Made by a program: the position numbers and the translations under genes
In this document: positions 17,585 to 20,500 of the stretch, piece by piece
How positions within the stretch are numbered: the first letter of the stretch is position 1
How the letters are laid out: the number at the start of each line of letters is the position of its first letter
DNA from: Argopecten irradians
Taxonomy: Eukaryota > Mollusca > Bivalvia > Pectinida > Pectinidae
Length of the DNA stretch: 64,000 nt
Assembly (NCBI RefSeq): GCF_041381155.1
Contig: NC_091134.1
Location: 1,422,001-1,486,000, forward strand
Direction of reading: 5' to 3'
The notes under the pieces: model-generated
The model's input: the letters and a program-made list of their open reading frames with translations, nothing else
The model's database searches: none
Told to the model about the DNA's origin: nothing

Positions 17585-20500
17585 TTACGGTAATTGATCC
17601 GACATGGCAAGATGTCTCAGACCTGAAATATAAGGGAAAAGTGTTAAAATTAGAAAAGAGAAACAAAAATCGTTCTATAAACTAAAGAAATGATATACAT
17701 TCACACTCAAATAAATATTTTACAGAAGGTTAATATGGTTACCATTTTTGCAAAAAAGTTCTGTATTTATAGTCCCTAAATATTACAAATACAATATCAT
17801 CGTTCATTATAACAAAACCAGGTAGGATGTGCTGGTTTGATTTATTGGGTTTTACCACTCTCTTATCATATTCAAAACAATTGGCCAATTGGTTTTCAAT
17901 ATCCGGAAACTAACAGTGCCAGACATATTGGCCAACTGTGGATCAAAGATGTGCCCATGACGCAAACAAAAGTACGACAAACAATAGCAGACCCCTACGG
18001 TCAAACAAAATAGATAAAATAGCAACCTGTACGGTCACAAAAAAAACGATAAAACAAACAGACCTACGGCAAACAAAAGTACGAAAACAATAGCAGACCT
18101 GTTACGGTCAAACAAAATACGATAAAGATAAACAATACGTCAAAAAAGTACGTACGACCTGTACGTCAAAAAAAGTACGATAAACAATAGCAGAACATAC
18201 GGTCAAACAAAATGTACGACAAACAATAAGCAGACCTGCTACGGTCAAACAAATGTACGATAAATAATAGCAGATGCTAATAACAAAAGTACGATAAACA
18301 CGATACAGACCTATAACAGTCAAATAAAAGTACGATAAATGTACAAAATACAGACCTGCTACGGTCAAACAAAAGTACGTACGATAAAATAATAGCAGAT
18401 ATGCTACGGTCAAACAAATGTACGATAAACAATACAGATACCTGCTACGGTCAAACAAAAGTACGATAAACAATAGCAAATGCTACGGTCAAACAAATGT
18501 ACGATAAAAATAGCAGACCTGCTACGGTCAAACAAATGTACGATAAATAATAGCAGACCTGCTACGGTCAAACAAATGTACGATAAACAATAACAGACCT
18601 GCTACGGTCAAACAAAGTACGATAAACAATAGCAGATATGCTACGGTCAAACAAATGTACAATAAAAATACAGACCTGCTACGGTCAAACAAATGTACGA
18701 TAAACAATAGCAGATATGCTACGGTCAAACAAATGTACAATAAATGATAACATACCTGCTACGGTCAAACAAATGTACGATAAACAATAGCAGATATGCT
18801 ACGGTCAAACAAATGTACGATAAACAATAACAGACCTGCTACGGTCAAACAAAAGTACGATAAACAATAGCAGACCTGCTACGGTCAAACAAATGTACGA
18901 TAAATAATAGCAGACCTGCTACGGTCAAACAAATGTACGATAAACAATAGCAGATATGCTACGGTCAAACAAATGTACGATAAACAATAACAGACCTGCT
19001 ACGGTCAAACAAAAGTACGATAAACAATAGCAGATATGCTACGGTCAAACAAATGTACGATAAACAATAGCAGACCTGCTACGGTCAAACAAATGTACGA
19101 TAAACAATAGCAGATATGCTACGGTCAAACAAATGTACAATAAACAATAACATACCTGCTACGGTCAAACAAAAGTACGATAAACAATAGCAGACCTGCT
19201 ACGGTCAAACAAATGTACGATAAATAATAGCAGACCTGCTACGGTCAAACAAATGTACAATAAATGATAGCAGACCTGCTACGGTCAAACAAAAGTACGA
19301 TAAACAATAGCAGATGCTACGGTCAAATAAAAGTACGATAAATAATAGCAATAGCCTGCTACGGTCAAACAAAAGTACAATAAACAATAGCAGACCTGCT
19401 ACGGTCAAACAATCGTACGATAAACAATAGCAGACCTGCTACGGTCAAACAAATGTACGATAAATAATAGCAGACCTGCTACGGTCAAACAAATGTACGA
19501 TAAATAATAACATACCTGCTACGGTCAAACAAAAGTACGATAAACAATAGCAGATATGCTACGGTCAAACAAAGTACGATAAAACAATAGCAGACCTGCT
19601 ACGGTCAAACAAAAGTACAATAAACAATAGCAGACCTGCTACGGTCAAACAAAAGTACAATAAATAATAGAAATGCTACGGTTCAAAAACAGTCAAATAA
19701 TAGAAAGCCTGTACACAGTCAAACAAAATACAATAAACAATAGCAGACCTGCTACGGTCCAAAAAAAAGTACGGCAGACAATAGCAGATATGCTACGGTC
19801 AAGCAATACATAAGATAAACCCGCGTCAAACGACGATAAATGATAGCAGACCTGCTGCGTCAAACAAAAGCTAAACCTGCTACGGTCAAACAAAAGATAA
19901 CGATAAACAATAGCAGACTTGGTACGGTTCAAACAAAAGCAAACCTGTTACGGTACAAACAAAAGTACGATAAACAATAGCAGACTTGGTACGGTCAAAC
20001 AAAAGCAAACCTGCTACGGTCAAACAAAAGTACGATAAACAATAGCAGACCTGCTACGGCAGATTGGAACCCGGCATTATAATCACATGCGACCTCGTTG
20101 TTGACGTAATTTGTCCGGCTGTCGGTATAGGAGTCGTTTCCATCAGGACCCCCAACCATAGCTCCATATAAGGTATGTGGGTTAGCCTCCTTTCGTTGCT
20201 CTGCTTCCCAAGAGCAAGGCGCGGGCATCATCGGGCAGGAACTGTATAACATACAAGGGGAAGCAGTCTATCCACGTTATCACCATGTACACAGCGATTT
20301 CCAGGCCCGCTTCAGCCAAGGAACTGTGCTGTTAACGTAAATTATTTAAAGTGGTGACACCGTAATATAAGAAATTGGCCAAAAATCTACACTGTCTTGA
20401 ACGAAATAGTTTTATAATATATATGGAATGGTCTTGCGTTTCCAGCGCGCCAAACCGCAAAACAATGGGTTCAGTAAATTATAAATGAAGTGGGCCTGAA

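What the first reader, a model, noticed from the sequence alone, without database searches (positions are those of the whole stretch)
17961..20059. Satellite that multiplies a splice donor in a cellulase gene
The 40-bp unit is the last 9 exonic plus first 31 intronic bases of the GH9 B penultimate exon, and the array starts at that exon edge. The transcript therefore contains some 50 tandem copies of the exon-end/donor sequence before one acceptor at 17622. Using donor 1 gives the normal C-terminus ([13 protein letters not shown]). Reading past it adds repeat-encoded hydrophobic residues and soon stops. Competing donors could alter splicing or C-terminal output, or buffer donor loss.
Basis: partly seen in the sequence, partly recalled or inferred. 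Interest (0 to 1): 0.82.

Follow-up and report, generated by a model that had tools for sequence, protein, structure and literature searches.

The report
Repeated splice-donor array in cellulase gene
In an animal cellulase gene, a 40-letter stretch spanning the end of an exon and its splice signal has been copied head to tail about 54 times into the intron, and similar arrays sit at exon ends of several other genes of this genome.

Summary
Array 17963-20059 (- strand) is 54 diverged units of about 40 bp, each the last 9 exonic and first 31 intronic bases of a GH9 gene's penultimate exon. The junction is ancestral: 9 of 9 GH9 genes found have CAG|GT there, and only this one shows the array. But only 31 of 54 units keep CAG|GT. 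On a GH9 donor matrix 25 copies equal or beat donor 1; the three clearly stronger lie 535-1295 nt away. Conceptual splicing gives three C-termini: normal, one 34-residue tail from donor 2, and one truncation shared by the other 32 donors tested.

Best reading: a tolerated minisatellite spliced out from donor 1, perhaps leaking to donor 2, as in the human ABCA7 VNTR. No RNA was available.

The wider result is recurrence: donor arrays in a second window gene, a second GH9 gene and an acyltransferase-like gene; 7 of 8 sampled CAGGTGAGT arrays start at a coding-looking exon end. Donor-motif triples are 6-8-fold commoner than reversed controls, single motifs 2.5-3.4-fold. Preferred seeding is unproven.

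The parts
20051..20241 (-). exon 9 (penultimate) of GH9 gene B, ends ...[11 protein letters not shown]|
   Evidence: translation; Pfam Glyco_hydro_9 3.9e-18 to profile 443/444; exon homologues in 8 other GH9 genes
17963..20059 (-). 54-unit, ~40-bp tandem array; unit = 9 exonic + 31 intronic bases
   Evidence: wraparound alignment; TRF
20049..20050 (-). donor 1 (CAG|GTCTGC), 8.56 bits; 36 of 69 GH9 donors score lower
20009..20010 (-). donor 2 (CAG|GTTTGC), 7.63 bits; would give tail [34 protein letters not shown]
19995..19997 (-). first in-frame stop on reading past donors 1 and 2; shared by 32 of 34 donors tested
19514..19515 (-). strongest array donor class CAG|GTATGT (12.5 bits); two more at 19155 and 18755
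17623..17962 (-). unique 340-nt remainder of the intron with the acceptor at its end; whole intron 2428 nt against 374, 294, 362 and 286 nt in the 4 paralogs measured
   Evidence: acceptor 6.62 bits
17585..17622 (-). coding part of exon 10 (last), [12 protein letters not shown] stop; AATAAA at 17563-17558
50875..51039 (+). second gene in the window: penultimate exon ...NVTHTNSQVLKLENSTTGQP-G|
50975..52364 (+). 98-bp array that also starts inside an exon end; 14 intact CAG|GTTAGT donors at 51037-52330
52731..52954 (+). proposed last exon of the second gene (E-SGYGTGINEANIPSSHGRS...SISG stop), in frame with the exon above
   Evidence: read by eye; one search prints the same peptide in another frame because the script cut it one base late

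Best explanation
The array is a donor-straddling minisatellite. A 40-bp segment across the 5' splice junction of an ancestral GH9 intron was tandemly duplicated, then expanded and turned over by slippage or unequal exchange. It survived because copy 1 keeps the complete exon and its donor while all later copies are intronic. Most transcripts use donor 1 by exon definition (191-nt exon) and splice to 17622, removing the array. A minor share may leak to donor 2 or beyond, giving a changed tail or a premature stop that is probably degraded. Shown: anatomy, shared junction, donor scores, isoform consequences, recurrence at other exon ends. Inferred: how the array grew, donor 1 use, neutrality, leakage, NMD.
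For: Junction shared by 9 of 9 GH9 genes found, array seen in one. The closest paralog has a similar donor, CAG|GTCCGC, which suggests that donor 1 predates the array. The unique intron is 340 nt (371 with unit 1's intronic part), like the 286-374 nt of 4 paralogs. Donor 1 is average (36 of 69 score lower) and its nearest rivals with CAG|GT are weaker. Donor columns are not preferentially conserved. The same anatomy recurs in other genes. In human ABCA7 a 25-bp VNTR that includes the exon-18 donor is described with canonical splicing from the exon-adjacent donor and with an isoform retaining one unit (passages read).
Against: No RNA. Eight array donors outscore donor 1 (five by 1.4 bits, three by 4.0 bits). 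Four AG sites in the array (9.2, 8.8, 7.6, 7.0 bits) and two in the unique intron (8.1, 6.8) outscore the assumed acceptor at 6.6, so alternative acceptors are not excluded. Neutrality is not tested on population data. Unit-level counts put donor motifs in arrays 2.0 and 3.1 times more often than their single-motif abundance predicts, which plain tolerance would not produce.
Confidence: 0.7

Rival explanations
1. Unproductive-splicing rheostat: distal donors compete with donor 1, and since nearly all give the same premature stop, array length sets how much mRNA is degraded.
For: 25 array donors score at or above donor 1; 32 of 34 tested donors share the stop at 19995-19997, lying 50 to 1968 nt before the junction. 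In ABCA7, VNTR length affects skipping of the next exon.
Against: The three strongest donors are 535 nt or more beyond the exon; nearest CAG|GT rivals are weak; donor columns are less conserved than the rest. In ABCA7 the one-unit retention did not vary with VNTR length.
Confidence: 0.15
2. Alternative tail: donor 2 is used as a regulated isoform that replaces [12 protein letters not shown] by a hydrophobic tail, perhaps for retention or anchoring.
For: Donor 2 is within 1 bit of donor 1 and escapes the stop. IFI6 isoforms use two downstream repeat units as donors (PMC4526556 passage). The GH9 domain ends before the tail.
Against: 40 bp is not a multiple of 3, so exon 10 is read in another frame; the tail differs from the 4 paralog tails read. 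No wider search for the tail was made.
Confidence: 0.08
3. Recursive splicing: each unit is a CAG|GT ratchet (acceptor plus donor) and the intron is removed stepwise.
For: The unit reads TTTGTTTGACCGTAGCAG|GT, formally a zero-length exon. Of 81 array AG sites, 49 reach the 10th and 8 the 25th percentile of 45 GH9 acceptors.
Against: The 29 GCAG|G sites of the typical unit average 2.4 bits, maximum 3.7, against a median of 6.8 for the 45 acceptors.
Confidence: 0.02
4. Assembly artefact.
For: One assembly only; edges are ragged.
Against: No Ns, diverged units, one locus; similar arrays at other exon ends.
Confidence: 0.03

Closest known systems
ABCA7 intron-18 VNTR, human (PMC5954066, Acta Neuropathol 2018; passages read)
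   Same: Tandem array that includes the native exon donor, immediately flanks the exon, and has later copies in the intron; use of the second unit's donor was seen in RNA
   Different: 25-bp unit in a C-rich region that begins at GT (no exonic part); length polymorphism and RNA are documented there, not here
IFI6 (6-16) minisatellite (Turri 1995, not held; title seen in reference lists; use of repeat donors stated in a PMC4526556 passage)
   Same: Minisatellite providing several splice donors
   Different: Downstream repeat donors encode isoforms there; here 32 of 34 tested donors give one premature stop
Internal tandem repeats at exon-intron boundaries of human segmental-duplication genes (PMC2812944; passages read)
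   Same: Minisatellites at boundaries modify intron structure
   Different: On average about 4 units there, and linked to new introns; here an ancient intron is enlarged
Intron gain by tandem genomic duplication (PMC4974935; title and start of abstract in a search listing only)
   Same: Tandem duplication and introns
   Different: No new intron here: the 9 GH9 genes found share this donor

Membership tests
Donor-straddling VNTR (ABCA7/IFI6 kind) | repeat unit contains the native 5' splice site of a coding exon | tested here: met
   paralog junctions
Donor-straddling VNTR (ABCA7/IFI6 kind) | array abuts the exon and extends into the intron | tested here: met
   array 20059-17963, intron 20050-17623
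Donor-straddling VNTR (ABCA7/IFI6 kind) | downstream repeat donors used in RNA | not testable with these tools
   no RNA data
Donor-straddling VNTR (ABCA7/IFI6 kind) | length varies between individuals | not testable with these tools
   one assembly
GH9 cellulase gene (PF00759) | catalytic domain match | tested here: met
   7.9e-69 for exons 3-5 joined, 3.9e-18 for exon 9
Recursive splice-site array | strong acceptor directly followed by donor in the repeat unit | tested here: not met
   29 GCAG|G sites, mean 2.4 and maximum 3.7 bits; a few ragged units have better AG sites
Intron gain by tandem duplication | intron absent from relatives | tested here: not met
   9 of 9 GH9 genes found have CAG|GT at the junction
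Dispersed satellite family | same unit at other loci | tested here: not met
   the only other match listed is a 65% place with a different unit; repeat counts of that tool are lower bounds

The most novel reading that the evidence does not exclude
This genome carries a recurrent class, probably over a hundred, of minisatellites seeded on 5' splice junctions of unrelated genes, and donors are preferred seeds (for example through transcription- or U1-linked instability), so that a visible share of introns grow by multiplying their own donor.
Probability: 0.35. Interest if true: 0.82.

Novelty: new member of a known kind. Interest (0 to 1): 0.6.

Why it matters
Donor-straddling VNTRs are known to me from two human genes, one of them (ABCA7) linked to Alzheimer risk. 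A genome with many would give a natural series to ask how the spliceosome picks one donor among dozens of near-identical ones, how introns grow, and whether 5' splice sites are fragile or merely tolerant places for repeat birth.

Tried and rejected
Recursive splicing and intron gain were set aside. The C14 locus was rejected as a relative (different 41-bp unit). The L025/L026 32-bp array ends 161 nt from a GH9 acceptor and, read by eye, holds no donor in gene direction. L027 (48-bp unit containing AGGTAAGT) has no exon that I could see, and of the 8 flanks L060 has none.

Acceptor comparison, mixed: TTTTTCAGG triples 69 against 67 reversed (singles 15429 against 9357), but TTTACAGG triples 4178 against 2187 (singles not measured). 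A donor/acceptor asymmetry is therefore not established. Array-level donor excess on contig C1 is about 12 arrays in the 71 Mb that the capped list reaches, against 2 control arrays on C1 (counted by eye); I do not claim this is beyond the 3.4-fold excess of single motifs.

Rows left out of the hand-read splice matrices: one unclear exon-1 donor (L016) and L017 exon 4, which has no intron; for acceptors, those of exons 6a and 6b, the last exons, and several unclear or odd ones (including exon 8 of B and L015), which may make the acceptor set look stronger than it is.

Midasin as the name of the L059 exon is recalled only: no Pfam or PDB match. The L030 exon alone has no Pfam match; only joined to the exon before it does it reach 8.8e-4. 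Coding scores are individually weak, in stretches and frames that I chose. Paper searches: of which I saw listings, plus passages of PMC2915984, PMC4526556, PMC2572611, PMC3618361, PMC2812944, PMC5954066 and PMC4039745.

Full report
Check of the observation. On the - strand the penultimate exon of a GH9 gene (called B) runs 20241-20051 and ends GCCGTAGCAG|GTCTGC. A repeat array follows to 17963, then 340 nt of unique intron and the acceptor at 17622. A wraparound alignment resolves 54 units of mostly 40 bp; unit 1 matches the consensus at 39 of 40 positions and contributes 9 exonic and 31 intronic bases. TRF reports the central part (18156-19806, 41.5 copies) and degenerate edge rows. A genome search with 1.1 kb of array lists only this locus and one 65% match on C14, which is a 41-bp array of a different unit.

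Is the junction real? Nine GH9 C-terminal exons were found in the 846-Mb genome. In all 9 genes the exon ends in CAG|GT at the same codon. A short last exon follows in the 4 paralogs where I located it; the others were not traced. Introns there are 374, 294, 362 and 286 nt, against 2428 in B. TRF shows no array next to this donor in the other GH9 stretches held. Pfam's GH9 model reaches position 443 of 444 within the exon, so the last exon adds only a tail. The array therefore grew on an ancestral donor.

Donor strengths. From 69 GH9 donors read by hand I built a position matrix. Donor 1 scores 8.56 bits; 36 of 69 score lower. Between 20245 and 17623 there are 269 GT sites; 26 score at least as high as donor 1, all in the array and donor 1 included: 18 CAGGTCTGC, 5 CAGGTCTGT and 3 CAGGTATGT. 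The next copies that keep CAG|GT, at 20010, 19944 and 19876, are weaker; the first equal is at 19851. By units, 31 of 54 keep CAG|GT, 9 have CATATC and 14 are otherwise altered; donor columns match the consensus in 84% of cells against 91% elsewhere. This argues against selection for keeping donors, though it is not a population test.

Consequences. I joined 34 candidate donors to exon 10. Donor 1 gives [12 protein letters not shown]; donor 2 gives a 34-residue tail [34 protein letters not shown]; the other 32 all stop after [18 protein letters not shown], with the stop 50 to 1968 nt before the junction. Acceptors: on a matrix of 45 GH9 acceptors the assumed acceptor scores 6.62 (median 6.77). 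Of 81 AG sites in the array, 49 reach the 10th and 8 the 25th percentile, and four (9.18, 8.81, 7.60, 6.97) outscore the assumed acceptor, as do two AGs in the unique intron; but the 29 GCAG|G sites that a ratchet would need average 2.4, maximum 3.7. So recursive splicing at the typical unit is disfavoured, while alternative acceptors stay possible.

Recurrence. In the same window a 98-bp array (50975-52364) starts inside another gene's exon and carries 14 intact CAG|GTTAGT donors; the exon joins in frame to a proposed last exon at 52731 (no Pfam family at E up to 1). In 193,901 bases (window, GH9 neighbourhoods, C14 locus) TRF finds 17 arrays of period 15 or more and 3 or more copies, overlapping rows merged. 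Three straddle an exon end with its donor: the two above and L023 5535-5825, where another GH9 gene repeats CCCCAG|GTTAGTG at the end of its Ser/Thr-linker exon. No row overlaps a mapped GH9 acceptor edge, but rows can stop short of ragged array ends, as B's own does. These stretches were chosen for GH9 genes and the window for this finding, so 3 of 17 is not an unbiased rate.

Genome-wide patterns. Three donor motifs with gaps of 20-50 bases: AGGTRAGT 14073 against 2216 for the reversed motif (one search is the same pair the other way round), CAGGTGAGT 2118 against 306, CAGGTATGT 3770 against 475. Single motifs: CAGGTGAGT 9737 against 2883, CAGGTATGT 18176 against 7136. These are overlapping unit counts, so long arrays weigh heavily. 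Reading the capped CAGGTGAGT list by eye gives about 12 arrays in 71 Mb of C1, with different units apart from one inverted copy, and with four resting on a single listed match; the control list shows 2 arrays on C1. Seven of the 8 begin at the end of an open, exon-like stretch preceded by an acceptor-like site, judged by eye; L060 does not. One exon passes its Pfam cutoff (L058, UreF, 5.3e-5). L061 has no Pfam match, and its 8 PDB matches at E 0.1-0.9 are all SLC2-family transporters. L064 has only DUF885 at 0.18; L057, L059, L062 and L063 have no Pfam match at E up to 1. In a codon test on stretches and frames of my choosing, random non-coding DNA does as well with chance 0.002 to 0.036 for the seven, 0.0008 for the known GH9 exon. 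A further array (C1:2890660, L030) follows an exon whose peptide, joined to the exon before it, matches Acyl_transf_3 at 8.8e-4, below the curated cutoff; the exon alone does not match.

Mechanism. Duplications across a donor leave exon and donor intact in copy 1, and everything downstream is intronic; this is enough for such arrays to persist. ABCA7 shows the behaviour expected: canonical splicing, a one-unit retention isoform not affected by length, and an effect of length on skipping of the next exon. IFI6 is reported to use repeat donors. Whether donors are preferred seeds stays open: normalised by singles the donor excess is 2.0 and 3.1 (my arithmetic), while acceptor motifs gave 1.03 (0.62 normalised) and 1.9 without normalisation.

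Novelty. The single array is a new member of a kind known from human genes. I found no report of donor arrays as a recurrent class in one genome in the listings of searches of an open-access subset; most subscription papers are not held.

Noticed in passing
window 50975-52364: 98-bp array with 14 intact CAG|GTTAGT donors at the end of another gene's exon; reading past donor 1 stops at once (GGT TAG).
   Followed up: yes
L023 5535-5825: A second GH9 gene (C11) has a 22-bp donor array at the end of its Ser/Thr-linker exon.
   Followed up: yes
L030 about 1470-3090 (C1:2890660-2897056): 41-bp donor array, at least 6.4 kb in the capped list, after an acyltransferase-like exon.
   Followed up: partly
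L057-L059, L061-L064: Seven further donor arrays at coding-looking exon ends (UreF-like, glucose-transporter-like and others unnamed).
   Followed up: partly
L025 4023-10000 and L026 1-10000: 32-bp array of about 16 kb or more inside an intron of a GH9 gene, 161 nt from the next exon.
   Followed up: no
window 14642-15874 and 53259-55479: Two arrays with related units (CACATACAC.GGAGGCCGTCC) about 38 kb apart; arrays longer than about 250 bp cover some 23% of the window (my sum and 24 coordinates).
   Followed up: no
L017 4106-4450: One GH9 paralog lacks the intron between exons 4 and 5 (exons contiguous).
   Followed up: no
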